The notes under the pieces were generated by a model that saw nothing but the letters and a program-made list of their open reading frames with translations, was not told where the DNA came from and did no database searches. From contig JAHQRK010000021.1 in NCBI GenBank assembly GCA_019828595.1, positions 124,001-188,000 on the forward strand: 64,000 nt of DNA. Reading direction: 5' to 3'. Positions 32,124-53,748 of this stretch are shown here, one piece after another. The position numbers were made by a program, and so were the translations under genes. This DNA comes from Aphanomyces cochlioides. Its lineage: Eukaryota > Oomycota > Saprolegniomycetes > Saprolegniales > Verrucalvaceae. Each line of letters starts with the position of its first letter. Within the stretch, counting starts at the first letter, position 1.

Positions 32124-32738
32124 TTTGACCTTTATGGCACCGTCGAACGTAGCCACGTAGCCTTCATCTTGGTCGGTGAATGTTGGCATTTGGACTTGGC
32201 GTGGCTGCAGTCCGACTTTGGATCGATTGGACTCAAACAAGGCCAGTTTCTCGTGAGTGGACTCGTCGGGAGGATGAAGGGTTTCGGTCAACATAATGGA
32301 TAAATTCCATCGCCCGTCAAGTTCATCAACAGAAACCACTTTGATTGTCCAGGGAGCCAACATTGCTGCCCAGTGGAGGTTCTCAGCCTTCGCCTGCTTG
32401 TCTTTTAGCAACCATTTCATCAATCCGAATCGCGTATAGACCACAACGACACGACCACGCACTTCAAATCAGCATGTCTTGAGCACGCGGAGCAAGGCAA
32501 GGATCTCTTTCGTCCAACCTTCGTAACGAGTTTCGCCGCCTTTGAGCACGCGTCCACAGAACCGAATGGGAAACAAAACGCCGTCGTCCTCTTGACATAC
32601 TGTTGCAGAGATTGCCCAACTTGTTGTGTAGATCAAGATGTGGGCTTCCTTGTCGGGAGCTGCATGCTTCAGGGTTGACAGGTTAGCAAAGTCTGACTTC
32701 AACTTCTCGAAGGCCATCTTGGCAGTCTCAGAGATCAC
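32124..32738 (-). pseudogene. Gypsy RNase H region, first part
   Basis: Two frames: 32738-32469 (RT-connected RNase H: KEAHILIYTTSWAISATVCQ, FCGRVLKGGETRYEGWTKEI) and 32462-32124 (second RNase H, YVATFDGAIKVK with the first catalytic Asp). A stop separates them at about 32,465. The frame is severed at 32,124. Confidence 0.75.
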
Positions 32739-33649
32739 TCCAGCTTCAATTTCTTCGTGTGATATCTCGTAGAGGCGCTTGCTTTGATTGAGTAATTCTC
32801 CACAAACCTCGAGTAGAAGTTTAGAGACCCAAGGAACGACTGAATGCCTTGCCGGGAATCTGGGAACTCGAGGTTAGCCAGCTTTTCCAAACCTTTTGGT
32901 CGTGCTGCAACGCCTCGCCGTGAGATCCAATGACCCAAGAATTCAATCTCTCGCTTGCCAAACTTGCTCTTGGATGCGCTTATGCTCACGTTGAAGTATG
33001 TCAGGCGTCTTAGGATTCGATCTGTCAGCTCGACGATACCATCCCAAATTTCTGCACCGTCGCTGATGTCATCCGCGAAGGATGTTCGGTTGGCGACAGG
33101 GGGCATGCTCTCTTCAGGGTATTTGTAATTGATCTTGAACATGTCCCTCGGTTCTCCGTCCTCATCAAGCTCGGCAGCACCGGGGGGTAAGTCGACAAAG
33201 CCAAACAACGCATTCGTGATCGTCCTCTGATAGATCATGGGCGCGTTTTTGAGACCTTGAGCCATCCTGGTCCACTCGAAGTGGCCTAGGGGGCAAATAA
33301 ACGAACTGATCAACCTTGCTCGACGTGTGGAACGCACAACCCAGAATCCACTCGCGTTGTCAAGGGATAGGAACCATTGTACAGCATCAAAATTGGCCAG
33401 AATACTATCCAGTGTGGGCATTGGCGACAGGAGTAGAGATTGCAGATCGTTGATGGCTCGATAATCAATGCAAAGACGGATGTCCTTGCCACCTTTCTTG
33501 AGCACTATAACGATCGGGGAGGCCCATGGGGATTTGGAATAGGTAATGAGGCCATACTCAAGGAGACCCTTCAGCAATTCAAACAGCTGCTTCAGGTGCT
33601 CAGGTCGCACCCGTCGAGCCCGTTGAGCTATAGGTCGGGCGTTCCCCAT
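32735..33649 (-). pseudogene. Gypsy reverse transcriptase
   Basis: 304 codons. RT motifs: GLLEYGLITYSKSPWASPIV, DIRLCIDYRAIND, FLSLDNASGFW (first catalytic Asp), FEWTRMAQGLKNAPMIYQ, and the catalytic pair as FADD rather than YxDD. Then KFGKREIEFLGHWIS and the GSLNFYSRF thumb region. The frame is lost at both ends, so the polyprotein is not continuous. Confidence 0.85.
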
Positions 33650-34382
33650 ATCAATATCGCAGACAGCCCCTCTGGCTGCAGGCCAGATTGGATGAAAAAG
33701 GGCATGTACTTGGAGAGCACAGCTTTCATCTTTGCTCGCTCTTCCTCAGGTTGGCCAGGCTCGCCAAAGTCGAGATCGTCGACGTGGATCGATGTTGGGC
33801 CAGGTGTAATCTCCGGTATAAAAGCTAGTTGGCTTTCCATCTCCTCGGTTGTCATGTCGATTCCTTCACGCACAATCACCTCAGGCTCTAGCTTGCTCTG
33901 ATCAATGTCGGGGACAGTCTGAAAGAGAATATCTGTGGGCAAGGAGGTTCGAGGTGATCTTCACCACTCTCTTCGAGTTGTCCTGGCGGCTTGGCATCAG
34001 TGGGGGATATCGAGCTAGCAATAACCATCGCGTCCTGCTTGTTTAAGGGTAATTCGCCCAGGCGCGTCATGACAGCCTTTGGCCAACCTTCTATCGTGGG
34101 AGGTTGGTGGACAGGGGGCTCGAATTTGTCTTCCTTCTTCAAGAAGCGGCTTGAGTAAGTGCCCTCGAAGACCTCATCTTCCCAGACTTTGTAGCGATTG
34201 CTGCTGGTTCGGATCATCCGCACGTCCAGTGGTCGTTCCCCTCGCACTGTAATAGCTCCAACAATTGTTCTTGGGAGAAGACTGATGCTGTACGCGCTCA
34301 CGTTGGTGATCTTAACTGCGACTGGATTGCTGTCCACCCCAGAGACAAACGTAGCGATCCATCGTGTGCCACGATGAACCAA
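33628..34382 (-). pseudogene. Gypsy protease-RT linker, two frames
   Basis: 34382-33888 and 33942-33628 encode the hydrophobic/acidic region between protease and RT (GWPKAVMTRLGELPLNKQDA; then GPTSIHVDDLDFGEPGQPEE and LSKYMPFFIQSGL). The frames shift against each other around 33,930. Confidence 0.6.
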
Positions 34383-34867
34383 TGTTCACATTCTTGAGGG
34401 TCTGCAGCCAAGATTCGCCAAATGGTTATCACGGTTGATTCACCCGGAGCAATCCAGGTTTGCTTCGAGGTTTCCAAGTACTGCACGTCGCCCCGATGAT
34501 ATCTTGTCGGTTGATAGAGCAATGCTACACGCTCTCCATCGGGCAAGCTGATTTCTCGACGCTCCGTATCAATGGTCACACATGCTCGAGAGAGGAAATC
34601 CATGCCAAGCACGGCATTGAACCCGACATTGCCCAGGTCGCAGACGTCTAACTCAAGGTAATAGGCAATGCCATTTCCAATGACAAGTTTGACAGGAACA
34701 GTGCCCAACGTACGGATGGAGTTTGATCCCAATCCATTGATCTTGGTAGATTTTCCTCTGTCGATTGGTAAGTTGAGCCACTCAAAAGCTCGTAGGTGTA
34801 CGACACTCATGTCAGCTCCCGTGTCAGCCAGAACAATGGCGTCACGGTCCATGAGTTTCGCACTCAA
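34298..34867 (-). CDS. Gypsy aspartic protease
   Basis: 189 codons. The catalytic motif is IVLADTGADMSVVH; the flap-side pattern IVLGMDFL appears as NAVLGMDFLSRACVTID, the usual second signature of retroviral-type proteases. A frameshift near 34,370 separates it from the linker. Confidence 0.8.
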   Translation of the reverse strand: MSAKLMDRDAIVLADTGADMSVVHLRAFEWLNLPIDRGKSTKINGLGSNSIRTLGTVPVKLVIGNGIAYYLELDVCDLGNVGFNAVLGMDFLSRACVTIDTERREISLPDGERVALLYQPTRYHRGDVQYLETSKQTWIAPGESTVITIWRILAADPQECEHWFIVAHDGSLRLSLGWTAIQSQLRSPT

Positions 34868-35225
34868 CTAGGCCTGATGGTTCCCTTCTTCGCCGAGTTT
34901 CGGTTCGTTGAGGAAACCAAGCTGCACCCCATCCTTCAGGTCGAATTCCCAAGGCGTGATCGTGTGGTCCTTGGTCGCATAATGTATCATGGGGGAGACA
35001 GTGTTGGAATCTTGAGATGTATTCCAGATTACGGGCTGCTTGTTGTCTACGGTGGCTAGCTTTGTGAAAGTTGTTTGTTGTTGGAATGGTTCTTGATATG
35101 TATCCACCGGGGCTCTTATGGCTGGTGGGTTGATTTTTCTTAGGTTTTCTTGTTTTTTGCTTTTTCTGGCGATGATTTGCGCGCGTTGTGTCCGACACGA
35201 TCGGGGTTTCGCGGGACCCCCGGAC

Positions 35226-36323
35226 TTAGAAGTTTAAACACTCCAAGGAAGGCAAGCCTTCCACGGGGTTTGCTTCAAGGAAAGCCTTCAACGCTGCGAT
35301 CTTCTCCCGCTTTTCGCATCTCTCAAATTTATTATGTGGCGGGGTGCAGATTGCACAGGCTTTGAAACAGTTGGTCTCTGGATGACCCATCTTGTTACAG
35401 AGGGTGCAGTAGATGTTGGACCAACACTGACCGTCAATGGTGAAATGTTCACGGCCACATTCATGGCATTGAACTCGCTTGGCTGAGCCGTATGATCGAC
35501 CAAGAGCAAATATCTCGGCTTGTAGGTCGTCCCACGATGCGCCCACGGACTCGGCTGAGTCCATGAATTGGACTGTCGGTTTTCGTGTCTTGGCTCGGTC
35601 ACTCACAGGAATGTGGGCATGACTCGGAGCCGACTGTGCCGACTTTGCTCGAGCTTGGAAACGATCAATGGCCTCTTGTTGTTGTTGCTTGTCGAGGTAC
35701 TCTTCTAGGTCATCGATCGTTCGGAACTGTTGTAGATTGATTGCTTGCGCCAGCATTCGATTCGTTAGCGTTCGAGCAAACCGATCAATATGGGCTGCCA
35801 AGTTTTCTCGATGTCTTCTATAGTCGAGCTTGATTCGTAATGCGGCCGCATTGAATCGCACAAAATATACCTTGAGGTGTTCGCCTGGCCCTTGTGTCAT
35901 GCTGTAATATACTTCGGTTTTCGGGATAGGGCTCTTGACGTACTCCTTGACAAATCTTGCTCTCAACTTTGTCCAACTTGACAGGAACTCGGGATTGACT
36001 TGGAGCAACCAGTCGTGAACTGGCTTGTCAGAATGCAAACGGAATCGACGGAGAATCTCTCTATCAGACCAGCCACAAGCGATGGCTGTTTCTTCAAAGC
36101 GCTGCAACCAAGAGGCAGCAGTATCTCGATTGTCGCGGTCACCGTCAAAGTTCACGATGGATTCCACAGACATTAATAGCATCGCGCTTGCTGCAGCAAA
36201 GTCTCCGATGGGAGACGAGTCCGAGTCATAGGAATCAGCTTCTTCGTTTGCTTTAGGCTCTGCGCGTAGCAAGGCCATCAGCGTTTTGACCAAATCGTCA
36301 TTGTTTCGTTTGAGCATAGACAT
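35226..36323 (-). CDS. Gypsy gag protein
   Basis: 365 codons. A capsid-like region (WLQRFEETAIACGWSDREI, ARFVKEYV, YYSMTQGPGEHLKVYF) is followed by zinc-knuckle-like CTLCNKMGHPETNC and a nearby CxxC...H. A second frame (36556-36278, starting MSAASTNYGDLPP) overlaps its 5' end and suggests that gag originally began at 36,556 with a 1-nt frameshift since. Confidence 0.8.
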   Translation of the reverse strand: MSMLKRNNDDLVKTLMALLRAEPKANEEADSYDSDSSPIGDFAAASAMLLMSVESIVNFDGDRDNRDTAASWLQRFEETAIACGWSDREILRRFRLHSDKPVHDWLLQVNPEFLSSWTKLRARFVKEYVKSPIPKTEVYYSMTQGPGEHLKVYFVRFNAAALRIKLDYRRHRENLAAHIDRFARTLTNRMLAQAINLQQFRTIDDLEEYLDKQQQQEAIDRFQARAKSAQSAPSHAHIPVSDRAKTRKPTVQFMDSAESVGASWDDLQAEIFALGRSYGSAKRVQCHECGREHFTIDGQCWSNIYCTLCNKMGHPETNCFKACAICTPPHNKFERCEKREKIAALKAFLEANPVEGLPSLECLNF

Positions 36324-36570
36324 CGTGACAACATCGTCAGACGCGGTGACTTGCTCGGAGGTAGGTCTCGAACCGTGGGAACGGCTAAAGGCCCACGTCT
36401 GGCCGAATGATGTGAGCCGCCAGATTGGCCCAAGTTTTCGTCATTCGGTGACCAAGAGGGTGTTCGATTAGTCGCGGCTTTGCGAACTTCATCGTCTTGG
36501 TGGATGCTTGCGGCTCGAGGCGGCAAGTCTCCATAGTTCGTTGATGCAGCGCTCATACTAAAAGATCAGA

Positions 36571-36587
36571 CCCGGTCTGGCGCTCCA
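36571..36587 (-). other. Possible primer-binding site of the Gypsy element
   Basis: On the minus strand the 17-mer starts TGG and reads TGGAGCGCCAGACCGGG, just 14 nt before the 36,556 gag ATG and after ACCACA, as expected for a tRNA-3'-end complement behind a 5' LTR. The tRNA was not identified and no second LTR copy was found. Confidence 0.3.
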
Positions 36588-37431
36588 CTTGTGGTAGGGG
36601 GGATGAGTGCGGAAGGAAACTCACACTCGCACAAGAATTTGTCGGTCAAAAGCTCTTTGTGAGATTTTCGACTTATAGAATTGAGGTGCACAGGAGGCAA
36701 CGAACGAACCCGACGGTTGCAAGTCATAGGGTGGCACAAGATGGAAAACGATGGGGAAGGTGGGGTGTCTTTGGCCCAAAAAGACGTGCGCCGCCGCGCG
36801 GTGAAGGGCTATTGGCAAGGGAAACAGTACAGGGGGGGTGTTGTCGGTACGCGGTGGGTACGACAACCAAACACAGGATCACGCCGCCGCAAATAAAGTC
36901 GGTCGGTCGCTCCAAACACGCTGTCTTAGACTTGGTTACTTCACAACAATGAAGCAGATGACCTCGGGGTCATACACAACAAAAGCGGAAGTGAATTCAA
37001 ACTTACTCTATCTACTCTAATCTGGTCTGTACCTGCTTGCCAGTCTCGGTGCACAAACACACGAGTTCCTCTTGCATTTTCCACTCGAAACTCTTCGGTA
37101 TTGGTCAAATGTCTCTTGTAGCGTTCTGGTCTCCGTCGTCGGCCGCATGTTCCGAATCTGCGGGATCGCGCTGGAGCTTGGACTGTATCTTCTTCATTCT
37201 TGCTCATGCTCTGTCACAATTTCATCATTTCCTCACAAGTACTCAAGACAAGTCATGGACTTTCGACATTTGGTCTATCAAGTCAAGTCAAGATTTAAGA
37301 CTTTGTTACTCGTCAAGCTTGCGTCGCTTTACTGTAGCACGAACATCCCGAACGATGGACATGAACTTGAGTTGTGGCACGCGTCGCTGCCTTGGATGGC
37401 TTCTCCGCGCACACTTGGAGAAGGTACTCTG
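36588..37431. other. Presumed 5' LTR/flank of the Gypsy element
   Basis: No gene. If 36,571-36,587 is a primer-binding site, the 5' LTR must begin here (minus strand). A minus frame around 37,207-36,941 (KRHLTNTEEFRVENARGTRV) reads like a transposon scrap. Long plus-strand frames here look like shadows. Confidence 0.35.
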
Positions 37432-38323
37432 CTATACGTCGTGTTGATGCAACTGTACCATATCGTCGTCACTAGGATTTTTTGTCATTCGAATTCCAGC
37501 TTCGCCGCAAATGACTACGAAATGATTCATGACAAACTTCCAATCGACAAATTGGTTCGTTTGGACACACATCTGGTTCAAAGGGATGTGCATAAATGTG
37601 TTTGGGATCTTTGTGTTTCGTGCCCCCTTGGTCTGTTTTGCTCTTGTAGAATACGACGCCAATTGAATCATCTTCGAAAGACAAGTGTTCCATTCGTATC
37701 GTCTGGGTTGATTTTGAGCGACACATGAGATTCCACGAGAGTGCAAGATAGAGGTGACAGAATCCGCCATCGAGTAAAGCAAGCGAATTCTTGGCAGCTG
37801 TTGCATAAGTTGAATACATCATGGGCCTTTTCCCACTCTCTTTAAGATCACCCGACCGAGTCGATTCAGCGTAGATTCTCCTTATTCCTAATCGAGGATA
37901 TGAGACATTGGCATGCACGTGGCTTACCTTGAAAGATTTCCTTCATGTCATCATCAAATTCAATGGGATATTGCACGCGTTTTTGCTTATAATAATCTCG
38001 TAAAGCTGACCGATATCCACACAATGTTCGAGGTTTATTGTTTGTGTTGCGAATCATCCATTCAATAAACGCAAGAAAGCCATCATAGCCAAAGTTTTCC
38101 AAGTCGATCTCACCGTTTTTGTCGCCGATCGGAGTAAGCATGTTTGGTTGACGTGATCGGCAATCCACTTCTTTATAACGTTTAAACCACTGCGATACAT
38201 CTTCTTGGTTGACTTTGAAACCCTGCTATCCCTGAGCTCTTGGATGCTTGTCATGCGTTGCTGGCGATCAATGTCCATGGCGTTTCTGTCCAATGACGAA
38301 GTGATGGGCAGGCGACCAAGCAA
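37432..38323 (-). pseudogene. Degenerate Crypton-like tyrosine recombinase
   Basis: Three overlapping frames on the minus strand: 38323-38054 (STKKMYRSGLNVIKKWI, core-binding domain), 38168-37866 (GYDGFLAFIEWMI, TLCGYRSALRDYYKQKRV, DDDMKEIFQGK) and 37918-37472 (LALSWNLMCRSKSTQTI with the first catalytic Arg; KTDQGGTKHKDPKHIYAHP). The arrangement matches the better-preserved Crypton at 46,076-48,228 residue block for residue block. The C-terminal HxxR and Tyr part is missing, so it is inactive. Confidence 0.7.
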
Positions 38324-38376
38324 ATTCAGTCAGTTCAATATTGAATGCAACTGTATAGAGAATTTGTATAGAATAA

Positions 38377-38884
38377 GGGCGGGTCTGGATGCCCATCAAT
38401 TTTTTATTCCATAAAACTGAAATGGCATTTTGCAAAAAATTTCCAAAGTTCCAAATTCACAATTTAAAATGGAATAGTTGGAGAATTTGTTATTTGTCTG
38501 GATGCCACAACTTGAGGCCCACAAGAAACTTCAACATTTCCGGTACAGACGAACTACTATGTCAGTCTCTTCCGACCGGAAACTTTGAAATGAGCCAGAG
38601 ATGAGCAAGGCTCGATCACTGTCGCTTCTCAGAGTGTTAGAATATGCAACAGTGATAATATATAGTGTGTGCGTGTATTTTTGTAGAGATGACAAGCTGA
38701 ATCTCAAGCTTGACTCGATCACTGCGTTCATGACGAAAATATGTCATAATTTGGCGAAAATTGTGACAAAAAATTCTTTGAGAAGGTGGCATCCAGACAG
38801 TCAAAATTGAAAATTATGGCATATTTCGAATTATGGCATTTTTTGGCATTTTTATGCCATTTTTGGTGGCATCCAGACCCGCCC
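38377..38884. mobile_element. 508-bp MITE, Harbinger/Tourist type
   Basis: Ends in perfect inverted repeats GGGCGGGTCTGGATGCC (38377-38393) and its complement (38868-38884), flanked by TAA on both sides (38374-38376 and 38885-38887), the 3-bp TWA duplication typical of PIF/Harbinger. An inner inverted pair GTCTGGATGCCAC/GTGGCATCCAGAC lies near 38,507 and 38,787. No coding capacity. Its right end is 86 bp from the UGGT start codon. Confidence 0.8.
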
Positions 38885-38929
38885 TAAACTTATTTAGAAC
38901 CCCTGCACCCCCACCTATCAGAAATGTGT

Positions 38930-38939
38930 TTATCCGGAC
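38930..38939 (+). promoter_or_regulatory. TTATCCGGA motif upstream of UGGT
   Basis: TTATCCGGAC, 33 bp before the ATG at 38973. Same core as in front of three other genes of this window. Confidence 0.45.
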
Positions 38940-38972
38940 AGGGTCATTTCGCCACGTAAGTGATCAAGCAGG

Positions 38973-41900
38973 ATGAGGATGACAGGACTCAGCCCCTTCC
39001 TCGGGCTTGCTTGCGCCTATCTGGGCCTAGTAGATGGACACCGTCATGTCCAAGTCAATCTTACGACGCCATACTTGGCGTCTCCATTGTTTCCCGTCTT
39101 GGAGACGTCGGAATTCCTCTCGCAGGAAGATCCCAAGTTGTTCTACTCGTATATCGATGCCGTCCAAATGCGCTTCCAAGCGATTCGAGACAAGGATGCA
39201 GTTAATTACACGCGTATTGCGTTGGAAGCAGCTGGAGACGTGTTGCCTGACCAGTCATCCGTTGCTCGCATGCTGCCATTTGTCCTGGAGACGCGAGCGT
39301 ACTCCCCAGCAGTAGAAATGTTCAATCAGGTACTCTATATCCCCGACCCGATCTTCAGATTTTTAAACTGACTGCGTTTAAGCTTGCGATCGAGTCTGCG
39401 TACAAGTCGTGTCCGAATCAAACTGTTGAAGCTTGGGCTATTATTTACCGTGAGATTGGATGCGCCGACTATATTATCTGCGATATCAAAGAATTTACCG
39501 ATGCAATGCTGGAGAAGCGTCCAGAAGATGAGCAATCTGTAAACCACTAGCCTTATAGTGTATGGTCCCTGAATTGTTTACGTAGACTTGTGCTGCTTCA
39601 GGACAGCATGATTTCCAATTTCATGTTGATCACGTGTATCCAAGCTTGAAACTTCGCGGAAGTACCCAAGTTATTGTGTATGGAGCCGTGACAACTCCGG
39701 CATTTCAAGCCTTTCATTCAAAATTCCTTCCCTTGGCCGTGTCCGGTGACATTGGCTACATTGTGCGCCATGCCCCTCAAGGAAACACGTTGCCCGTCCT
39801 CGTACAGGGTTATGGGGTCTCGTTGAACATTAAGAACATGGAATACAAGACGATTGATGACTCAAAAGAAACCAAGGCACATTCCAGTAGCCATGACGAT
39901 GAAGAAGGTCGACTTCTCTTTATGTCAAGGTTATTCAAGTGTTTGTAGATGACTTCATCGTGTCGGTTATGACTAAAAAGACTGATCAAGTTGGCAAAGC
40001 ATTGCGTGAGTACCAAAAGGAATTTGAAGATGCTGAAGATGAAGGAGCAGAGGATGAAGAAGAAAATTCAGTGGTAACTAGCCTTACGACCGTGAAAACG
40101 TGTTCTTAACGTCTGTTTAGCCTTGGCAATTGTCTGAATTGGGTTATTTGGCGACGGAAAAAATCCTAGCAGATGAAAATCCGCTCAAGCGATTGCAACT
40201 CATTTCACAAGATTTTCCGAAGTATGCTGCGTCGTTGGCATTGACCCAGACGCGCCCTTCACCTGAAAACATTACAGAGATAAAAAAGGCTAGAGCCCAA
40301 GTGATTTCCAAGGTAATATTTATCGTCACTTGACAAATAACATTAATACGACAACTTGTAGCGGTTGCACAACCGCATCGTGGTCAATGGCTTGGCATTC
40401 GATTTCAATGAATACGGCTTTAATGCGTTTGATTATCTCAAAACTTTGTCCAAGGAGCTCCGTTTAGCAGATACTTTGAAGCATGTGGATCCATCAGGAG
40501 CCATCAAGGCCGCTCTCTCCTCCCTCGCGAGCCAAAAAGAAGACGTGCGTGTTGCCGTTCGTGGCACTGTTGATGGCCTGGCGCCGTTGTATTTGAATTC
40601 AATTGAGACTGACGAAGATACAAAAGACTGGTCTACAGACATGTCAGCGTTGCGAGGCCCTAGTTGGAATTTAATCTTTTTGCGCAAAGTCATGTATGAA
40701 ATCATCTTGGTGGTAGATCCTACGACGTATGTTGGTGTCGAAGCCATGCGACAGGTACATTTCTTCTTGGTAAATATCTGAAAAAGTATCTCAGGTTAAT
40801 TATTTGCGTATGCGTCAAGCTCCAGTACAATTTGGCGTTTTGTGGACTTCTCCTGAATTTCTGAAAATGAGTCGTGAGGTATGACTTGTACTTTTTGTTT
40901 CCCCGTGACTCTAAACCGTAGGAACGACAAACTTACATCCCAACGACCGATGAAAAAGCTCCTGCCACTGTGTTCCATGTGTCAAAATTGTTTTATGCAG
41001 CTCGCAAGCGCAACACCGAGGCTGGCGACCAATTACTGCGTGAACTATACAGTCTTAACGGCGATGTGACCGTCAAAGAAATATTGCTTATGTACAGCCA
41101 AGCCGTTGGCGAGCGCTATTCCAAGGACGATTGGCTCGAGGTAACATTCCCAGCCTTGATTCGAAAGAAGAATAATGTTTTGGATTGATTTAGGAAGCTA
41201 AGAAAGTTATGCTCAGTGAAAACAACGAAGTCGTTTGGGCGATGACTGATTTAGTCTTGAGCAAAAATTTACCATTGAACTCGCACCTTTTTAATGGTGT
41301 TGTCCAGACAAATTTGAATATTCAAGAAGGCATCATGGGTCATTTTGGACGAGATCAAGCAATCTATCAAGCTCTGGTGCGTGAAGACGTTATCACAGAC
41401 GATTCCGACATGCTCAATGAACTCCTCGCAAGCGAAGGCGCTTATTCAATTTATTGCCCATGGTTTGACAGCGACTTCATCGAGCCAAAGCATTCTCTCA
41501 ATTGGAAGGATCTTGTGCGAAAGCATACCACTGATGTTTTCCTCATGAAGTGAATTGTAGGCATGGCAAAGTGTTGGATCCTTCCATGCTGCTGGCACTG
41601 CTCAAAAACCCAAGCGCCAAAATATACTTTTGGTATTGATGAGCCGCTTTTAGTAAAATTGACAAACCTCTGGAATAGTTTGCCAATTTAGATAAGCATT
41701 TTGGAGCCCAAAGTGCGTACCAAGCTTTAAGGAGCATTGCGGACTACCCAGACCTCCGCTTGAGTATAATCCACAATGGCAAAGACGGCGACAATAATTC
41801 TTTGGGCAAGCGAATGGCATATATTTTGTCCCAACTCGGTCACACAGATTCGCCAGTCTATAGGGGTGTCGTGTTGGAGGTAAAGCGAACTTACTCGAAG

Positions 41901-44254
41901 AGATCACAACCATATTTAATTAGATCTTGCGCATGATGGGCAAGAAAACCCCGGAAGAAGTACTCACACACAGTCGATTATTTCTGCAATTGCATTTGGA
42001 TGCAAACCCCGAGGATGCTGTATTGCCTCAAATTGGCAAATGGTTGGTAGATGCTCCAATTCATGTCAATCCATTTCGAAACCTCGTGGACGACGAGCAT
42101 CTAATCTTGATCAATGGTCGGCCATTGGATTTGGAAGACTCTCCATTGACTGCTCACCTGTTGGACGGCTTAATTCAATTTGAGGCGAACTCACGCTCGA
42201 AAACTGTTTCGAAAGCCTATGTGTCACAATTCAAACACGACAATTTCTCGGTCGAAGAAGCGGCGGAGAAGAGTCATGCGTTGTATCACGTGATGGAAAT
42301 GGTCGATGAATACTTAAAGACCCCACGTGTTTCGCCAGTGTTTTCTCAACTCAATCCTGCCTTTTCCTACCATACAAACGACTCTGAAAATGCCATCATG
42401 GATATCATTGCGTACTTGGATCCTCTGAGCGAAACTGCACAAAGAGCTAGTGGCATATTGCGCATGTTGGAGTCAGTCCTCGGTGCTAAAATCACGTTAG
42501 TCTTGTTGCCTTCGCACGATTATGAAGAATTCCCGCTAAAGCGATTTTACCGCTTTCTTTGGGGAACAGGCACTACTCAAACTATCCATTTCAACAATTT
42601 GCCACGACAACCTGTGTTGACAATGAACTTGGAAACTCCAGAGTCTTGGAATGTCCAGATGATAAAATCTGATACCGACGTTGACAATATTCAGCGTAAT
42701 GCATCTGCGACTTACTACATCAAAGATGTTTTGGTCTATGGCCAATGCATGGACCGAACAATGCCACATTACCCGTCTTTGCCAAATGGCTTGCAGCTTG
42801 TCTTGGAACGAACAGCCGCAACGCAACATTTCCACAAAGACACTGTCGTGATGAAGAATTTAGGTTATTTCCAATTGCAAGCTGCTCCTGGTGTGTGGCA
42901 ATTGCACGTGGCCAAAGGTCGTCATGCCTCCATTTACGAACTGATGCTCAAGGTTTGCTCATGCAGTATTTTCAACCTTAATGTTGAACAAATTAGGATT
43001 CAAGAGTCGAGTCGGTGCCGGTCGTAGTGTACGACTTCTTGTCATCAATCATGCAGCTCGAAGTGAAAAAGCGAGTCGGTCAGGAATCGGCTCATCTCTT
43101 GGACGACTCAGCAATCTCTCAAGACGAAGAGGAAGAAAAGAAATCGGACGAAGACAAGTCATATTGGAGCTCTTTGATGAATTGGGGCAAACCCACACCA
43201 GCAACAGTGCGCAAAGGAGATACAATTCATGTCTTTTCGCTCGCTACGGGTACACCATTCACCAAGAAAGTCACAAATTTCGAAACTTTTCTTAGGACAT
43301 TTATACGAACGCATGCTTAAATTGATGATGCTCAGTGTATTGAAGAGAACGAAAAATCCCGTCACTTTTTGGCTTCTCGAAAACTTTCTATCACCTGGTA
43401 TGACATGCATGCTGTTGTTCAGTTGAACTTGATGACCTTTAGATTTCAAGAACAGTGTGCCAGCACTGCAAGCTGAATTTGGAATGGATATTCGCCTTGT
43501 CACGTACAAATGGCCCAACTGGTTGCGTCGCCAAACAGAAAAGCAGCGCATTATTTGGGGCTACAAAATTCTCTTTTTGGATGTGCTATTCCCCCTTGGT
43601 GTCGAGAAAATCATCTATGTCGATGCGGATCAAATTGTCCGTGCCGATTTGAACGAGCTATGGACAATGGATTTGCAAGGACGTCCCTACGGCTACACTC
43701 CATTTTGCGATTCCCGAAACGTTGGCTTTCAATTCTGGCGCCAAGGGTGCTTCATTCCAATTTTCATGACGGTCCTCATTTCTATGCGTCGTAGGTATTG
43801 GAAGGATCATTTGCGTGGCAAACCATATCACATCAGTGCTTTGTACGTTGTGGATTTGGTCAAGTTTAAGCGAATGGCTGCTGGTGATACGTTGCGTGCG
43901 ATCTACGATCAGCTGAGTGCTGACCCGAATTCGCTGTCGAACTTGGATCAAGACTTGCCGAATTATGCCCAGCACCAAATTCCAATTTTCTCCTTGCCTC
44001 AGGTATTTCATGTGAAAAGAATAAAGTTGAAAACGCTGTGACAGGAATGGCTGTGGTGTGAAAGCTGGTGCAGTGACGAGACGAAAGAGAATGCTAAGAC
44101 CATCGATTTGTGCAACAACCCCAAGCACAAAGAACCTAAACTTGACATGGCCAAGCGTGTCATCTCAGGTGATCTCTTTCCCGAGAGCTGGCTCGAACTC
44201 GACAGCCAAGTCAAAGCCGCAGAAGCTCGCTATGCACAAACAGCTACAGCGTAG
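38973..44254 (+). CDS. UGGT: UDP-glucose:glycoprotein glucosyltransferase (ER folding sensor)
   Basis: About 1,540 residues in 15-16 exons. Reglucosylates misfolded N-glycoproteins in the ER lumen for calnexin-type retention. A signal peptide is visible ([16 protein letters not shown]), then the long thioredoxin-like/β-sandwich sensor and an acidic patch ([12 protein letters not shown]). The C-terminal GT24 domain (42,997-44,254) carries [47 protein letters not shown], the DxD motif in [34 protein letters not shown] and [21 protein letters not shown]. No HDEL-like ER signal ends the protein (QTATA). The reading frame breaks between 41,550 and 41,678 (see findings); if real, the allele is damaged. 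Convergent with the mannosyltransferase at 44,413. Confidence 0.93.
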
Positions 44255-44412
44255 CGTCGATTGCATACTTTGTTGTACAAACTCTTGAGGCAGAATAACC
44301 AAGACAAGGATATCCCCATTCGTGCCATCGAATTGTAACATTTCCACGCAACTATAGCCTGCCAAAAGGCAGACAAGAGGAAGAGAAGAAGGAGGAGTTG
44401 TTAGCATCCCAA

Positions 44413-45323
44413 TTAGACAAACAGGATGAGGAAAATCGTAAAGAGGATGATGAAGATGCACCACAAGAGCGACGGGTAGGCAAAGTTGTACAAGTCGACA
44501 AGGTGCTGCAAGTACAGTACAATCACTTTGCTCGAGAGCTTGCTTTCGCCATGGACACGCACGCCAAAATGGATCGGCACTTCTGCGTGCTTTTTCACGC
44601 GGCACTTCACGTACAATTCGAGCGCAATCTTGAAACCGACGGGGTTCACTTCGCTCTTTCTTGCACGGTGCGCGACAGACTTTGGCAGACCGAAAAAGCC
44701 CGTCATTGGATCAGACAAACCGCTCAATGGACGAGCGAGCATGCGAGCACCTTTGGAAATCACTTGGCGATACACCGGCCAATCCTTGTCGACTGAAAAA
44801 CCTTCACCGCCATATCGCGTGCCAATGACAAACTCTGCGTTGCCTTTCTCAGGGTCAATTGCATCGATAAGCTGGGGTACGCTCTCGGGTGGGTGTTGCA
44901 AGTCGGCATCCATGCACAACAACAACGATCCTTTGGACTATCGGGAATATCAGCATCTTTCAATTGTTTTCTCAACCGTACCTCTTCAAATCCACGCAAG
45001 ACTGCACTACTAAGTCCTCGTTCGGTCGTTCGTACAATGATACGAACGTTCAAGCCTGTGGCAGCAAGGGATTTAATCACATCTTCCGATCCGTCGTTTG
45101 AATTGTCGTCCACAACGATGATTTCCGTCGTCTTGGCACTATCTCCAAGCGCCTTAAAGACTCGAGTCACTAATTCCTTCAAGTTTGCACATTCTTTGTA
45201 CGTAGGAACGACAATCGACGCCTTAACAGCGCCTTCAGCGCCACGGGATCGCAAATCAGCCATCAATAAGTTTTTTTGAATGTGTTGCTCACCCGTCGTT
45301 TCTGTTGATCCGATACGTAGCAT
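44413..45323 (-). CDS. DPM1: Dolichol-phosphate mannosyltransferase (GT2), C-terminally anchored
   Basis: 288 residues from exons 45323-44982 and 44937-44413. Transfers mannose from GDP-mannose to dolichol phosphate on the ER membrane. GT2 landmarks: ASIVVPTYKECANL, IIVVDDNSNDGSEDVI, SAVLRGFEE, LLLCMDADLQHPPESVP (DxD), VIGTRYGGEG, VYRQVISKGARMLARPL, GLSDPMTGFFGL, FKIALELYVKC, and HGESKL. It ends with a hydrophobic helix (LWCIFIILFTIFLILFV), like yeast-type DPM1, rather than the short human form that needs DPM2/3. It sits tail-to-tail with UGGT, 158 bp apart. Confidence 0.85.
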
Positions 45324-45870
45324 TTAAATTATAATTAAAATACACATTTTATGTTCGAAATGCATTTAATACATATTTCAAACAGCTTTCTGGTTGAAAT
45401 TGTGTGAGATGGACACTATTTTAAATATATTTAAAAATTAAATTTCCAAAATCGCAGAATCCAGCTGGACAAAGTTTTAAATGCATTCTTAATTAAATCC
45501 GAAAATACTATAATAATAATAATGAGTAATATTTTCATATTGTTCCGTATCTCCTGGAGCCAGGACATTCTGAAACTCCGTTCCAGCGCGATTGCCCATC
45601 AGATCATGTGGATAAATCGTACTCTACTGACAACAGTATTTGGTAGCTGCAATCTATTTTAAAATAGGGTTCATATTGCAGGTTTTGTTTTCAATTATTT
45701 TGAAACTCATTTGACAAGAATACTAGTACAGTACTAGTAGATTCTTTATTAAATGTCAATAATTAATTGGTTGAAAAATTGCAGAAGTTGTAGAAATTGA
45801 ATATTTCAAAATAGTTTAAAATTAAATCTTATTGTCGTTTTGGTACAAAACTGGAAATTTGATATATCTG
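45324..45870. other. AT-rich spacer left of the Crypton
   Basis: Strongly AT-rich with homopolymer-like runs; no gene. It includes the upstream side of DPM1. Confidence 0.45.
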
Positions 45871-45908
45871 CTGCATGTGTGATTATTCAATTCAGAATTT
45901 GTATTGGA

Positions 45909-45929
45909 TGTGATATTTCTTCAATCACA
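45909..45929. repeat. Palindromic site 1 of the Crypton
   Basis: Arms TGTGAT and ATCACA separated by 9 bp. A degenerate relative (TGTGATT...AATTCA) lies just left, at 45878-45894. Confidence 0.55.
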
Positions 45930-46012
45930 CTTGACGTGAATCTAGATTCGATACGTCTCCAAATGACTTAATTTAAGTGTACTCTTGTTCGGGTTGTAAG
46001 ATTCTTGCCATG

Positions 46013-46032
46013 TGTGATTTCGTTGAATCACG
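46013..46032. repeat. Palindromic site 2 of the Crypton
   Basis: Arms GTGATT and AATCAC with a 6-bp spacer, immediately upstream of the recombinase start. Confidence 0.5.
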
Positions 46033-46075
46033 GATCTACCGGGGTGTCTCATTGGCCATTTTTGTTTTACAGGCA

Positions 46076-48228
46076 ATGCCAAGAGGTCAGAAGAGACATC
46101 CCGTAGCATTCGAGGCGACAGAAGATCCGTCTGCGGTCGCTCTGAAGCTCAAGCAAAAGAGAACAAATGACAGTACAAAGCTTACGTACAAGTCTAAGAC
46201 CAATCGCATGATGACGTGGTTGAGCAGTAATTATCCTGATACAGTCGACGAGCTCGAGAATCGCGTTAAAATTCCGCTGCCGAACGATGCTGTCTTAGGT
46301 TTTTTTGGCCACATATGTAAGGATGCATCGCAATGCGACGAAAGCAACACAAACACGGTTACACCTTTGTCATCATCATATATTAAGGGATATCGCAGTG
46401 CTTTAGTTGATTTGTACAGAGCCCAGTCACTTGAGTTGGATCCTACATTGAATACTGAATTGAAAATTATGCTTGATGGCTATGAAAAATTGATAAATGA
46501 CTTGAAAAAACGTGGCTTGATGGACATCATGGAAGGAAAGCGCCATTTGAAGTCGACAGGATATTCCTTTTTGGCTCTACACTTGATGCAGCTTTGTCCA
46601 GAGAACAGTGGTCAATCATGGTCAACTACCCTTTTTGCATGGCCCTATTTTGTTTTAATGTGGAATTTGATGAGCCGAAGTGAATCCGTTGATTCTATTA
46701 TGCTCCAGCATTTAGATTGGCAAGAAGATGCATTAATTATTGAGGAGCAGGGCCATAAAGGCGACCAAACTGGTGCAGATAAATTTGGAAAGCATATTTA
46801 CGCTAACCCATACGAGCCACATCAATGTCCTATCCTTGCCCTTGCTGTTTTGCTATTTTGCCGTGAAAATCATTCATCGAAAGTTCTCCATCAGTTGTTT
46901 TGTGGCACTGACAGCAAAAATAGATTTGGCAAAATACTTCGACGCGTTCTTGATAATTTGGGAGATGATGGCAGGCATGCTCTAGGCTGTCCAGCAAATG
47001 AAATTGGCACACACAGTTTACGCAAAGGAAGTAGCACTTATGCCTTGGGCAGATCAATGGCCCCAATCCTGTTTCTGTATTTTTGCGCATGGGGCAAAGC
47101 TTAGGAAAATTAAAAGACAAATACATTCACTTTGGAGAAGGCGCAGATCAATTATGTGGTCGCATGGTGTGTGGACTACCATTTAACGATGAGAGTTTTG
47201 CTTGTTTACCTCCACACTTTTCTAACGAACTTCTATCTCTTATGGATCTTAAATATTGGTGTACGATTGTCCCCGGCTTTGATAATTATCCACATGGAGT
47301 AAAAACGGCATGTCCATTCTTGTTGGCATCGCTCATTCATCATGAAGATTACCTTAGGTCAAAGCTGGAATTATCGCATCCTTTGTTTTCATCAAGAGTC
47401 TTTACACACAACAATTTGCTCAATAGTTTGCGCCACAAAACAAGTATTTACATTGGGATATCTCCAGAATTGGCAATTAAATCTACTGGTGTACCACCAC
47501 ATTTAGCTATTGCTGCCAAAGTAAATGCGCTAGTATGTGAATTAAACTCTCTCAAGTCAAGTCTATCTACGTTTGTTTCCGATCTTTCTGAATCAATGCC
47601 AAATTTGATTGCATCGAGGGTGGTTGAAGAGATTAAGCAAAACTTCGTTGTGGATGGAGTTGCACCAATAGCTATCAGAGACATTGATTCGAGATTTGCA
47701 GAACTAAGACAAAGCTTACTTGAGAGTATGCGGCAATTCAATACGGCTGGCAATACTGTTGCCCCTACACAAATTGAGTCACCTGTCGTTGATAAATGGA
47801 AAACCTGGTGCTGGAATGACGGACTCATCTGTCATTTTGTGCCCCCAGGATGGAATTTTCCTTCACACTTGACCGTGAAAAAACTTTGGGAGCTTTGGCA
47901 TTTTGGAGACGAATGTGCTCATATTCGTCCCTGTAAGAATTTGGTAAAAAGGGCTGATATAAAGAAACCACACCACATGCGATATAGTCTCGCCAAGGCC
48001 GTGGTGGCCTTCGTTGACAGCAAAATCAAGCTCCCACTCGGTAAATCGGGCATAAATAGCCTACACGTTGGTCAGGTTGATGGAATATATGAGATTGCAT
48101 ACCCTGAAGTGATAAGCCTGCTCTACGGATCCAAACCCACTCGGCGAGTCGACGACATCACTTACGGCAGATTGTACAATGTCCTCTGTGCGTTCAAAAA
48201 GCAACAAGTCGTTTCCATTCGTCAGTAA
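46076..48228 (+). CDS. Crypton tyrosine recombinase with GCR1_C-like DNA-binding tail, one frameshift
   Basis: Two frames: 46076-47104 and 47083-48228, joined by one missing G near 47,057. The core-binding domain (TYKSKTNRMMTWLSSNYPD) is followed by the catalytic R of NLMSRSESVD, a Lys-containing β-region (EEQGHKGDQ), HSLRKGSSTYAL (HxxR) and the nucleophile Tyr in LGKLKDKYIHFGEG. After a spacer with coiled-coil character, the C-terminal domain reads WNDGLICHFVPPGWNFPSHL and LWELWHFGDECAHIRPCKNL, matching the GCR1_C DNA-binding fold carried by fungal and oomycete Cryptons. Only the single frameshift separates it from an intact 700-residue gene. Confidence 0.85.
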
Positions 48229-48265
48229 TAAGAGCATAATTAACCAATGAACTTTCCTGATTGTT

Positions 48266-48286
48266 TGTGATTTCAAGTCAATCACA
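48266..48286. repeat. Palindromic site 3 of the Crypton
   Basis: Perfect 7-bp arms TGTGATT and AATCACA with a 7-bp spacer, 38 bp downstream of the recombinase stop; the best of the set. Confidence 0.55.
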
Positions 48287-48647
48287 CATGCCGTCATTAT
48301 ATATGTTTGAAAATGTTTCAATTAATTGACGCTTACACTATTTAAAGTTTACGCAACATTTTCTTATATTGACCTCGATCGTGACCATTAAATAATGTAA
48401 TTTCAAACGTTTTGCATGTTTGGAAACATGTTCGAAACATTCAATTTCTTTTCACTTGAAATTTGTATGAGTCAATTTGCTTGCGTCAAAATTTATTCCG
48501 CACGACTCCAGTTTTTTATTAAAACGACAATACTGGAAAAATATTTTTAAATGTCGGAATTTATTTGATATATACGTGTGAGACACCATCAAGTCGGTTC
48601 CAAGCATACTGAAACCAAGTCCAAGAAGAATCGTCATCTCCCACAAG

Positions 48648-49345
48648 ATGGGATTCCATCGAGCCAAGTTGATCGTCGCGGAGCTAGTGCACAAGTGCAT
48701 AGACAGCGAAAGAAGGATACGGCGTCTCCTCTTTGTCGACACACGTCGACTGCAAAGCTCGTCGTCGTCATCGTCGCTCTCCATCGGTGCCATCGTTGGC
48801 ATTGTCGTCGGTGTGCTGGTACTCGTCGTCATTGCGTGCATTTGCATCCGGCGCGCGCGTCTCGAGTCACGACGAAAACAAATGCAGAAACGAGTCGATC
48901 TAGCGTTCAATGAAGGCGCGCAGCAGCAAAAGCTTGGCCTCCAGGAGACACTCTTGGTTCCCACTGCCCGTTTATCCCAAGCACCGCATGGTGAAGTGCC
49001 AACACCGATCGAACACGTCGTGGGAAGCACAGACTCGGACGACTTTGTCATTATGGGTGGCGGCAAAGCCACAGGTGCCGCTGGCGCGCCTGATTTTGCC
49101 AAGATGAACAAAGTTGGCATGAACATGAAAACCAACGTCAAACCTCCATTGCCGCCGTCGAAGCTTGGTTTGATCTCCTCTACATTGACAAGTATTAACG
49201 AAAATGTGTAGGTGTGCTCGAAGATATCCACAGTGCAGCATCAGGTGACTTTGTAGCGAGTTATGTGAGCGACGACATTGCAATTTTGCAGTCGGCACGA
49301 GGTGGCAGCTTTGACATGGAGAATCCCAAGTGGAAAAACGTATAG
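48648..49345 (+). CDS. Single-pass membrane protein, unknown
   Basis: 217 residues from exons 48648-49167 and 49212-49345 (44-nt intron). A serine run (about residues 41-47) precedes one strong transmembrane helix (IGAIVGIVVGVLVLVVIACI), then a positively charged stop-transfer stretch (RRARLESRRKQMQKR) and a 130-residue Ser/Asp/Gly-rich cytosolic tail ending FDMENPKWKNV. The layout suggests a type I membrane protein. The N-terminus before the helix is doubtful: no signal peptide is seen and the Crypton and AT-rich DNA lie just upstream, so the true first exons may be lost or displaced. No known domain recognised. Confidence 0.6.
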
Positions 49346-50077
49346 CGACGATGCAATGCTGCGCATACCTTTTTATTTTGTGGCCAATGTTTATTGTTGT
49401 CAGGTGTTCTCTCAATCTATCTCTTTTTAGCTAGCAACCCCCATTCCCGCATTTACCCCTGTCTCGACTGCTGCACTGACGTTAGAAACTATGTCTGGAG
49501 CTCAACAAGCTTTGTTTCCCAAACTTTGTTTTGGTTGACTCATCGTGCAATCGGCCATGGCTTTCTTGTGCAATCTCCTTGTTTCTGTGGATTTAGTCCG
49601 TGTCAAAATCCCTTGGCAAATGAGAAGAATTGAGCTGCCTGCCTGCTCTATGGACCGAAGCAATCGTTGCTTTGGCCCCTCGCTTGCACAGAATCTACTT
49701 GTGGAACCGCTGGGAACTATGTCATTACTTGCAAACGAAAAAAATAACCCTTTTCAAAGATATATTTTTTAGTGGCAAAAAATAATTTATTTTTATTGCA
49801 TGTGGTTACGAGTAAATTATTTTAAGCAAATATAAAAAAATAGGTTACTCGAACACAATGCATAGAAAAATAAATAAAAAAAATTGAGAATATTTTTCAA
49901 TATTTTGCTCACTAAAAATGATTAAAAAAACGCACAAAAATACCCCAAAATTCTTTTCAATTTTTCACTATTTACAGGATTTTTTTAATGAGTGGTTAGC
50001 ATTCCGTAAGCCACTACAGCCATTCAAATAGCACGGTAAAAATCCAGTGTCGAGTTTTCATTTTCAATTTCTCGTCC
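49346..50077. other. AT-rich spacer
   Basis: No gene; 49,740-50,000 is almost pure A/T. It probably includes the left part of the hAT element. Confidence 0.4.
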
Positions 50078-51554
50078 ATGGCACCGAAAGAAACTTACTC
50101 CGTTGAAGGCAAAGAGCTCACCCTGCTCTTTTTTAAGCGCGACTCCCCTACTGGTGACACTTGGACATGTAAATGCGGAAAAGTGCGAGTCCAATCAAGC
50201 TCGGGGTACTCGAACCTGACAGGGCACATCCATCGCTTTCACCCCGAGTATGTGAATCTACGTCCTAACGACCCCGCTAATGAGCTTACTGTGCTGGACA
50301 TGCTTGTTTCGCCTACGACGCGAAAAGTGTATGGTTGGTTGCAATGGGTGTCCAAGTCCCTTCTGCCATTTTCATTCGTTGAAAATGAAATGACGAAAAG
50401 ATACAGTAGTTTGCCCCCCATATGTGGAAAAACATTGATTAACAGTAAGTACATGCACTTGGTCACGCAAGCCCTGGAAAAAAGATTTGCGCGATGCTGC
50501 CGTCGAAATTTGCTCTTATCTTTGATGGTTGGTCGTCTGGATCGTCCCATTTTGTGGCCATTTTGCAACTTTTCCATCCTTGAATTCTATTGGCTATAAA
50601 AGGGTGTTATTATCTTTTTCACCAATCAACGACGAGACAAGTTTGGATGCAAGAGCCCATATCGATTATACGGATTATGTTTTGGAATTATACGGAAAAA
50701 CGTGGAACAATGTGGTGGCGCTCGTTGGTGACAATTGCTCGACGAATGGTGCTTTTGCGCGTGAAGCTCGTGTTCCGCTAGTTGGCTGTGCAAGCCATCG
50801 CTTCAATCTCATTGTTGTGGACTATCTGAGTCAATTTGAAGACGTTCTAACACTAATTAACACCCTTATGAAGAAGCTAAGTGGTCTAATCCTATCGGCA
50901 AAGCTCCGCCGCCACACCTTCCTTGTGCCAAAGATGCGCCAGCAAACGCGCTGGAGTTCGTGCTACGATATGGTGAAACGTTTCGGCGAGCTCAATGAGT
51001 ACCTGGTTGAAATGGGTGACGCGACGGTGGACTCAATGATGCCGACTGTGGCGCAACGCCGCGAGCTCGAGCGCCTCCAAGTCGAAATGGAGCGATTGAA
51101 TGAGGTTACATTGTATCTACAAGGTGAGGATGTCAGTGTGAGTGATCTCCGCCGTGTGTTCGATACCGTTATTGAGCAGTACCCGTCCGCCGCTCGATAC
51201 TTGTCAACGTCCGCGCACGTCGTGCACAACGAGAATTTTGAGAATGGGGTTGTGAAAATTTTGAGCCAATCAGAGGCAAGTATGAGTGATGACGAGTGTC
51301 AGAGTGTATGTCATCTGTTGGATGACTCTGCAACAAGTGCGGAAAGCGATGAAGGCATGTCGATTGTGCAGCGATCCAAGCGCCGCAAGACCAATACAGG
51401 TATGTATATTGATTGCCGATTTATTCGGCCAACGTCGAATGTGTGTGAGAGATTTTTCTTGTCAGCGAAATTTGCGCTCAGCGACCGGCGCCGATCGATT
51501 TTGCCACGCAATTTTGAAGCTCAAATGTTTCTCTACGCCAACAATGAGTACTAG
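50078..51554 (+). pseudogene. hAT-family transposase with BED zinc finger, frameshifted
   Basis: Frame 1 (50,078-50,480) begins MAPKETYSVEGKEL, with a BED-finger pattern TWTCKCGKVRV...LTGHIHRFHPEY (CxC...HxxxxH). Frame 2 (from about 50,495) carries the catalytic FDGWSSGS, VVALVGDNCSTN, VGCASHRFNLIV, TRWSSCYDMV and the C-terminal dimerisation signature NVCERFFLSAKFALSDRRRS. A 1-nt shift in an A-run near 50,480 separates them. The order matches oomycete hAT transposases. Terminal repeats and the 8-bp duplication were not found. Confidence 0.8.
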
Positions 51555-51933
51555 GGTCTCTCAGACGTTTCTGATGCCCTACGTATTGACCAACAAGCCC
51601 AGTGATTCATGTAGTAGCTGATTATAATGATGAATACATTTTGCATGAGTTCACCAAAGTTATTTGAGTAATAAATCGTCAGTGCCGATCGCGATGAATA
51701 AGTTATTCTTTGACCTTGCCCGAGAAAGTTATTTATCGCGGCGGCGATGGTTTTGAATAAGTTATCTCCTCCATGTTGAGCTATGAGTAGGTTTGAAGTT
51801 TTATTTTTCCAAGGTCTGATTACTTGAGACTACCACCAAGTTGTGCATCGTCGATTTGGCGGTTAAGTGTCTGTACCTCGATGAGTCTGTAGTTCTTGTC
51901 TGTAGCTCACCAAAGTCATGACGGTGATACATT
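51555..51933. other. Spacer between hAT and Harbinger
   Basis: No gene. GAATAAGTTAT occurs twice (around 51,694 and 51,757) near short GC-rich stretches; it could be the right subterminal part of the hAT element. Confidence 0.35.
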
Positions 51934-52058
51934 AGAGAGGTTTCGCAAATATGTAGTATAGTTCCCGAATGTACTATGGATATGCTATACTAGATGCATG
52001 TATGACAGGAAGAGAAAGCGTTTTGCGACCTCTTTGTAGTATAGGTTTCAGTTCTACA

Positions 52059-53098
52059 ATGGATGCATCATGGGCGGTCGCTCTCTTTGCCTACTCTGAA
52101 GGATACGATGCCCTTGTCTATGCGCTGCTGGACAGATCGATTCGTGAACGTATCAGCATCCCAGTCCTTCGCTTTGACATTGATTCGTACAGTGAGACCA
52201 GCTTTATGGATTTATTCCGATTCCGAAAGGCAGACTTTTTTCTTTGGTCAACAAACTAGGATTGAGCTCGGTCCTGATCCTGCCATGTCAAACAAGAGTG
52301 ACTCATGTTGAAGCGTGTTTGATCCTTTTACGCCGGCTCACGTATTCCAATCGATGGTTCGACTTGGCGCTAATATTTGGACGCTCCAAACCTGCACTTT
52401 GTCGTATATTCATGTTTATGGTAAAGCATTTGTATGATAGATATCACTCCAAAGTAGCGTTTGATCGACATGTACTACAAATGTATGGCCAAGAGTCTGT
52501 AAGAGCGATCACCAACAAGTCTGGTGTTCCATTGAACTGCACTGGATTTATAGATGGCAGCGTTCGTCCAATCTCACGACCAAGTCGACATCAACGCCAG
52601 GCATATAATGGCCACAAGAGGGTTCATGCTATAAAGTTTCAAAGCGTCGTCCTTGCAAACGGTCTCATCGCGTCATTGTATGGACCCATCGAGGGTCGTC
52701 GCCATGACGTTGCACTCCTACGCGAGAGTGGACTTGGCGCTAAAATGCGTTCCCTTGGAGAGAATTTCAAGCTGTATGGTGACCCAGCGTACCCCTTGCT
52801 CAATTGGCTTATTGGTCCATACAAGTCATCCAATCTTAGCCGTGGACAATCTGAATTCAACCGGCGTATGAGCCGCGTTCGAGTTTGTGTTGAATGGTGT
52901 TTTGGAGACGTCATTCGATCATGGGCATTTCTCGATTACAAGAAAAATTTGAAAGTTTTCCTATCCCCAGTGGGAAAGCTATACATTATTGGAGCCTTCT
53001 TAACAAACTGTTTGGCATGTACTCGAGGTGGAAACTTGACAAGCAAGTTCTTTGGTACTCCAACACCAACGCTGGATGAATATCTTGATGACATTTAA
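52059..53098 (+). CDS. PIF/Harbinger transposase, one frameshift
   Basis: The first frame (52,059-52,259) gives MDASWAVALF and FRFRKADFF; a 1-nt shift in a T-run near 52,230 leads into VNKLGLSSVLILP and the rest of the protein. Full DDE set: CTGFIDGSVRPISRPSR (D), LYGDPAYPLL (D) and VCVEWCFGDVIRSW (E), with GPIEGRRHDV between. Length and order fit DDE_Tnp_4. Of the two Harbinger transposases in this window it is the better preserved. Convergent with its Myb-like partner. Confidence 0.85.
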
Positions 53099-53155
53099 TC
53101 ATGATTAAGTAATGGAAGAGTCTAAATGTGAATTATGAATTTATCATGTACCGTT

Positions 53156-53748
53156 CTAGCCCTTTGAAGTGAATTGCTTCATGATTTCCATCATGCTGTT
53201 CTGGAGCTGAAGTGCCTTGGCGTCGTTTTCAGCCTTTCGCAATTCCAATTCAAGGCTTTTTGCTTCATTCTCCATCATCCGTTTCTTGTATGCCGCGTCC
53301 TCTGTTATTTGGATTTCTTTCAACTCCAACTCACGTTGTCGAATTTTGAGCTCGGCATCTTTCGCGTCTGTCATTGCTCGTAGGACCGTGTTGATATCGA
53401 TCTTTTCAGACTTCTTTATTTGTTCCTTCACCATTCCACACAGTGCAGCTTCACGAAGAGCTGCTCCACCTACTGCGTTAGCTTCTTCGATAGTGTCCAT
53501 TTTTGAGCGCTTTCTCTTTTTTTCCTCCTTTGCATCCTCCAAAGCTTCATGATACTCTGTGAGGAGCCGCTTGATTTCCGTCATGTCTTCGGCGACTCCA
53601 CTCGCAGCCTTCGATACCTTTTCTTCTTCAAGGTGGCCTTCGTGCAGCAAACGAAGACGACACTGTAAGCTGTGACTGGACGCATCAATTCCAAGGCCAC
53701 GTAAAGTCTTCTCTATGGTCGTCCAAGCTTGAGCTTTCGTAGTCGATT
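53156..53748 (-). CDS. Myb/SANT-like gene of Harbinger, C-terminal part
   Basis: From 53,748 the frame reads STTKAQAWTTIEKTLRGLG, the second half of a SANT-like repeat, then a long charged coiled coil (KRLLTEYHEALEDAKEEKKR; RELELKEIQITEDAAYKKR) ending MEIMKQFTSKG. It lacks its own start because the N-terminal part is at 31,958-32,123. Confidence 0.75.

What the first reader, a model, noticed from the sequence alone, without database searches (positions are those of the whole stretch)
32124..53748. A 21.6-kb inversion that splits and swaps a Harbinger and a Gypsy element
At 32,123/32,124 a Harbinger Myb-like gene (plus) is joined to Gypsy RNase H (minus); at 53,748/53,749 the other part of the same Myb-like gene (minus) is joined to the rest of Gypsy RNase H (plus). 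Cutting at exactly these points and flipping the segment makes the Myb-like gene 253 codons in frame, joins TFDGAIKVK to CGSWGAIIW in frame in RNase H, and brings together the two AGAGAGGTTTCGCAA termini as inverted repeats. Two unrelated elements healed by one flip is strong evidence for a single inversion with breaks inside both. It carried UGGT, DPM1 and the membrane-protein gene. A misassembly or a heterozygous inversion would look the same.
Basis: partly seen in the sequence, partly recalled or inferred. Interest (0 to 1): 0.9.

Follow-up and report, generated by a model that had tools for sequence, protein, structure and literature searches.

The report
Small DNA inversion inside two transposons
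A 21.6-kb stretch of this genome assembly appears flipped around, cutting one DNA transposon and one retrotransposon in two; the flip is well supported by sequence but is an ordinary kind of chromosome rearrangement.

Summary
The inversion is well supported from the assembly. Uninterrupted relatives in the same genome show that both elements were cut and their halves exchanged by one flip. The breakpoints are slightly off from those given: 32,119/32,120 and 53,751/53,752. At the corrected points 4 Harbinger and 5 Gypsy bases are missing, so a flip back keeps neither frame; the in-frame joins are coincidence. Three bases at the left junction fit either element; the right junction shares none. 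This suggests two double-strand breaks repaired by end joining with the segment turned round. No long shared sequence sits at the junctions, which argues against overlap misassembly and against recombination between inverted repeats. Two probed regions are single-copy, so no second haplotype was seen, but no reads were available and heterozygosity stays open. That each element was one insertion is not proven: Harbinger target duplications agree at 2 of 3 bases, and the Gypsy 3' LTR is missing, cut away at a third junction (56,516/56,517). Ordinary structural variation; low interest.

The parts
32120..53751 (.). Inverted segment (21,632 bp) with corrected breakpoints; carries the Gypsy 5' part, UGGT and DPM1 genes, and the larger part of the Harbinger element
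   Evidence: Spacing and sequence of uninterrupted copies; length
32117..32123 (.). Left junction: 32,117-32,119 fit both elements (3-bp microhomology); 32,120-32,123 are Gypsy, not Harbinger
   Evidence: Short comparison with Harbinger copies on C1 and C12 and with Gypsy copies
53749..53752 (.). Right junction at 53,751/53,752, no shared base; 53,749-53,751 belong to Harbinger
31735..32119 (+). Harbinger left part: terminal repeat and first 54 codons of the Myb-like gene (31,958-32,119)
51934..53751 (-). Harbinger right part: rest of the Myb-like gene (from 53,156) and the other terminal repeat
   Evidence: 22 substitutions and 2 gap columns in 1,820 aligned columns against the C1 copy
52196..53098 (+). 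Harbinger transposase ORF (DDE_Tnp_4)
   Evidence: PF13359, E 1.6e-23
32120..37218 (-). Gypsy 5' part: 5' LTR at 36,590-37,218, reverse transcriptase at 32,735-33,745, start of RNase H
   Evidence: 33,101-37,218 is 95.7-97.0% identical to four copies; 32,124-33,100 is 94-96% identical to the four nearest full-length copies; RVT_1 E 3.6e-17
53752..56516 (+). Gypsy 3' part: rest of RNase H and integrase; its 3' end and 3' LTR are missing
   Evidence: From 54,701 on 94.8-97.0% identical to four copies; RVT_3 E 2.1e-14, Integrase_H2C2 E 2.7e-8, rve E 1.1e-6 but under its curated cut-off
41924..43027 (+). Piece of a UGGT gene inside the segment
   Evidence: PF06427 E 1.4e-18
44413..45323 (-). DPM1-like glycosyltransferase gene inside the segment
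   Evidence: PF00535 E 1.7e-18 on 44,760-45,323; one genome match to 44,300-45,400

Best explanation
A Harbinger DNA transposon and a Gypsy LTR retrotransposon lay about 14.7 kb apart with UGGT, DPM1 and other genes between them. Two double-strand breaks, one in each element and 21.6 kb apart, released the segment, and end joining sealed it back in reverse, with a 3-bp microhomology on the left, none on the right, and a loss of 4 and 5 bases. Shown from the assembly: the reciprocal halves, the junctions and the missing bases. Inferred: that each element was one insertion, that one event made both junctions, and the break-and-join mechanism.
For: Harbinger copies on C1 and C12 run straight through the point with 4 bases between the places where the two window halves end (2 of 2); three more distant copies also continue through it. 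Gypsy copies at four places measured directly show 5 bases between the halves, and 12 of 12 copies that match both sides keep one spacing. The Harbinger halves diverge alike from their relatives: 2 of 387 and 22 of 1,820 substitutions against C1, 4 of 387 and 22 of 1,819 against C12. The two exact termini become inverted by the flip. The left flank and the DPM1 region each match one place.
Against: The 3-bp duplications that should flank one Harbinger insertion read TAT on the left and AAT on the right after the flip, 2 of 3 alike; the C1 and C12 copies have 3 of 3. The Gypsy 3' LTR is absent, so its 4-bp duplication cannot be compared. No reads and no related genome with gene order were available.
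Confidence: 0.85

Rival explanations
1. Assembly artefact: the contig was misjoined at both points.
For: No reads could be examined; both elements belong to multicopy families, where misjoins happen.
Against: Overlap misjoins need long shared sequence; here it is 3 bp on one side and none on the other. Two independent chimeras would have to complement each other to within 4 and 5 bases in two unrelated elements.
Confidence: 0.06
2. The inversion is real but heterozygous or confined to the sequenced strain, the assembly showing one of two arrangements. This is compatible with the main explanation.
For: Harbinger copies differ by about 1.1-1.5%, so this insertion, and the inversion after it, look recent; nothing here shows fixation.
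Against: No alternative haplotype was seen: the left flank and the DPM1 region each match one place only. A collapsed assembly would also look like this.
Confidence: 0.3
3. Replication-based template switching (FoSTeS/MMBIR type) rather than two breaks and end joining made the inversion.
For: A short microhomology at one junction, and a third junction 2.8 kb from the right one, would suit a multi-step event.
Against: No duplicated or inserted bases were seen at either junction; a microhomology of 3 bp or more is expected by chance at about 5% of junctions.
Confidence: 0.12
4. Site-specific or transposase-driven inversion, by the Harbinger transposase or by a tyrosine-recombinase-like element in the segment (45,977-48,228).
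For: A DDE transposase ORF and recombinase-like ORFs (name recalled) lie in the segment.
Against: The breaks lie 385 bp inside the Harbinger end and inside Gypsy, not at termini; the two junctions share no core and bases are lost, whereas conservative recombination loses none (the rule is general knowledge).
Confidence: 0.02
5. Chance: the four half-elements are unrelated truncations.
For: Target duplications do not confirm single insertions.
Against: Complementary to within 4 and 5 bases in two elements at once, about 7 in a million on a rough model.
Confidence: 0.01

Closest known systems
Small chromosomal inversions formed by end joining (general knowledge, recalled)
   Same: Two reciprocal junctions, small deletions, short or no microhomology
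   Different: Nothing essential; both breaks happen to fall in two unrelated mobile elements
PIF/Harbinger DNA transposons
   Same: DDE_Tnp_4 transposase, short terminal inverted repeats and 3-bp duplications in the C1 and C12 copies
   Different: The window copy is split by the inversion; its duplication matches at 2 of 3 bases
Ty3/Gypsy LTR retrotransposons
   Same: LTRs, reverse transcriptase, RNase H, integrase; 4-bp duplications in two relatives (4 of 4 bases in the C14 and C15 copies, 3 of 4 in C89)
   Different: The window copy is split and lacks its 3' LTR

Membership tests
End-joining inversion | Two reciprocal junctions explained by one flip | tested here: met
   Halves complement to within 4 and 5 bases on uninterrupted copies
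End-joining inversion | No extended homology at the junctions; small loss or short microhomology | tested here: met
   3 bp at the left junction, none at the right, 9 bases lost in all
End-joining inversion | Junctions present in the organism's DNA | not testable with these tools
   No reads held
Inversion by recombination between inverted repeats (NAHR) | Inverted repeats at the two ends | tested here: not met
   Four inverted pairs of 25 bases or more were found in 30,000-60,000, none at the breakpoints; each junction joins unlike sequences
PIF/Harbinger | DDE transposase of the DDE_Tnp_4 kind | tested here: met
   PF13359 E 1.6e-23
PIF/Harbinger | Terminal inverted repeats with 3-bp target duplication | tested here: inconclusive
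   C1 and C12 copies: repeats and 3 of 3 bases; window copy: repeats exact after the flip but 2 of 3 bases
PIF/Harbinger | Myb/SANT-like second protein | tested here: inconclusive
   Neither piece gave a Myb match in Pfam; the longer piece gave only a CwsA match under the curated cut-off
Ty3/Gypsy | Reverse transcriptase, RNase H, then integrase between two LTRs | tested here: inconclusive
   Domains found in this order over the two parts; LTR pairs in 3 of 4 fetched copies, one LTR only in the window copy

The most novel reading that the evidence does not exclude
The inversion and the nearby third junction at 56,516/56,517 (Gypsy fused to a terminal-repeat element whose outer tip is missing) arose together in one local multi-break event, a small chromothripsis-like or template-switching rearrangement focused on a transposon cluster.
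Probability: 0.1. Interest if true: 0.4.

Novelty: new member of a known kind. Interest (0 to 1): 0.25.

Why it matters
It is a base-resolved, probably recent inversion that turned round housekeeping genes without cutting them, because both breaks fell in mobile elements. Multicopy elements act as a ruler: their uninterrupted copies give the breakpoints without a second genome. It also warns that an in-frame join is not proof of an exact breakpoint. Wider consequences, such as local suppression of recombination or changed expression of UGGT and DPM1, are untested.

Tried and rejected
In one search, 16 Gypsy rows were printed; 7 of them (loci on the other strand) showed the wrong stretch and were dropped, leaving 9 rows from 6 places. 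In one search, 2 of 9 Gypsy rows failed the pattern match and were not measured; the other 7 are 4 distinct places. A test by target duplications gave 2 of 3 bases for Harbinger and could not be made for Gypsy, whose 3' LTR was not found in the window or in C14:104,001-124,000 and 188,001-238,000. A search for an orphaned Gypsy 3' end as partner of the third junction (33 matches): of 7 full or nearly full matches, 5 have the preceding Gypsy sequence next to them and one is the C14 copy seen; C15:572,662 and the partial match at C12:191,105 were not checked, so an orphan is not excluded. A fifth Harbinger-like copy (C13:1,222,372) at first looked as if it stopped near the left point; it continues 22 bases beyond and then has a deletion of its own. 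Recombination between inverted repeats and site-specific recombination were rejected on junction sequence. Synteny elsewhere could not be tested: the genome tool has no relatives for this assembly. The organism was not identified. A paper on Aphanomyces euteiches (PMC8780586, passages seen) describes a 72-Mb long-read assembly; ours is 76.2 Mb. Paper searches (listings seen) showed no title or abstract start about this inversion; the library lacks most subscription papers.

Full report
What was checked. The window is C14:124,001-188,000 of a 76.2-Mb assembly in 94 contigs.

Breakpoints from uninterrupted copies. Searches of the same genome with each of the four flanks found relatives that run through both points. 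For Harbinger, the copies on C1 and C12 (about 1.1-1.5% different from the window copy and from each other) have 4 bases between the places where the two window halves end (2 of 2). More distant copies on C7 and C13 keep the same spacing, so 4 of 4 copies that match both sides agree. A fifth, C13:1,222,372, continues 22 bases past the point and then has a deletion of its own. The other matches among the 8 and 7, the window's own included, do not reach the point. For Gypsy, 12 places match both sides and 12 of 12 have the same spacing; 29 of the 42 matches, besides these and the window, are partial or distant and were not used. Four distinct places measured directly give 5 missing bases. Short comparisons place the breakpoints at 32,119/32,120 and 53,751/53,752.

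What this changes. At the corrected breakpoints 4 and 5 bases are missing and neither frame is kept. The argument 'healed in frame' therefore fails, but 'two unrelated elements complemented by one flip' now rests on copies and not on reading frames.

Mechanism. Three bases at the left junction fit both elements; the right junction shares none; nine bases are lost in all. No inverted repeat of 25 bases or more sits at the two ends. This points to breakage and end joining (inference). A microhomology of 3 bp or more occurs by chance at about 5% of junctions, so it does not separate classical from alternative end joining. By logic the inversion is younger than both insertions. The two elements would have stood 14,715 bp apart before the flip.

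Weak points. If each element was one insertion, its outer flanks should carry the same short duplication. For Harbinger they agree at 2 of 3 bases, whereas the C1 and C12 copies agree at 3 of 3. For Gypsy the 3' LTR is gone. Two relatives have 4 of 4 matching bases and a third has 3 of 4, so a one-base mismatch is not unheard of in young copies here. At 56,516/56,517 Gypsy is fused to a terminal-repeat element whose other end, and whose ends on C5, C9, C15 and one end on C56, extend about 20 bases further (7 of 8 stretches; the other C56 stretch, L070, does not show it). A third rearrangement, probably a deletion, seems to have removed the Gypsy 3' end. It lies 2.8 kb from the right breakpoint and may or may not be connected.

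Artefact or haplotype. Neither junction offers the shared sequence that an assembler would need, and the left flank and DPM1 region each match one place, so no second haplotype was seen; other parts of the segment were not tested for this. Without reads, heterozygosity and error cannot be excluded.

Verdict. A well-supported, probably recent, base-resolved inversion of an ordinary kind, with both breaks inside mobile elements. The paper listings showed no earlier report of it, but the library is partial and the organism is not identified.

Noticed in passing
56,516/56,517: Third junction: Gypsy fused to a terminal-repeat element (56,517 to at least about 59,826) that lacks about 20 outer bases of its left end; the Gypsy 3' end and LTR are missing.
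   Followed up: partly
45,977-48,228 and 37,472-37,942: ORFs that resemble Crypton-type tyrosine recombinases (name recalled; no Pfam match for 45,977-47,104); 26-base inverted arms at 45,830-45,855 and 48,507-48,532 flank the larger one.
   Followed up: no
3,211-4,668: A second Harbinger-like pair of ORFs in the same convergent arrangement (resemblance judged by eye).
   Followed up: no
G000:C23:3,838,640, 3,840,137 and 3,841,634: Three LTR matches evenly spaced by 1,497 bases near a Gypsy copy, suggesting a tandem duplication.
   Followed up: no
G000:C14:101,854-102,023: A 170-base fragment of the same LTR about 22 kb upstream of the window.
   Followed up: partly
57,754-57,929: An 84-base tandem repeat, 2.1 copies, inside the terminal-repeat element.
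   Followed up: no
L010:729-743 and 1107-1121: In the C1 locus a second Harbinger terminus in the same direction lies 378 bases outside the element.
   Followed up: no
G000:C13:1,222,372 (L004): A distant Harbinger-like copy with an internal deletion that begins 22 bases past the window copy's breakpoint.
   Followed up: partly
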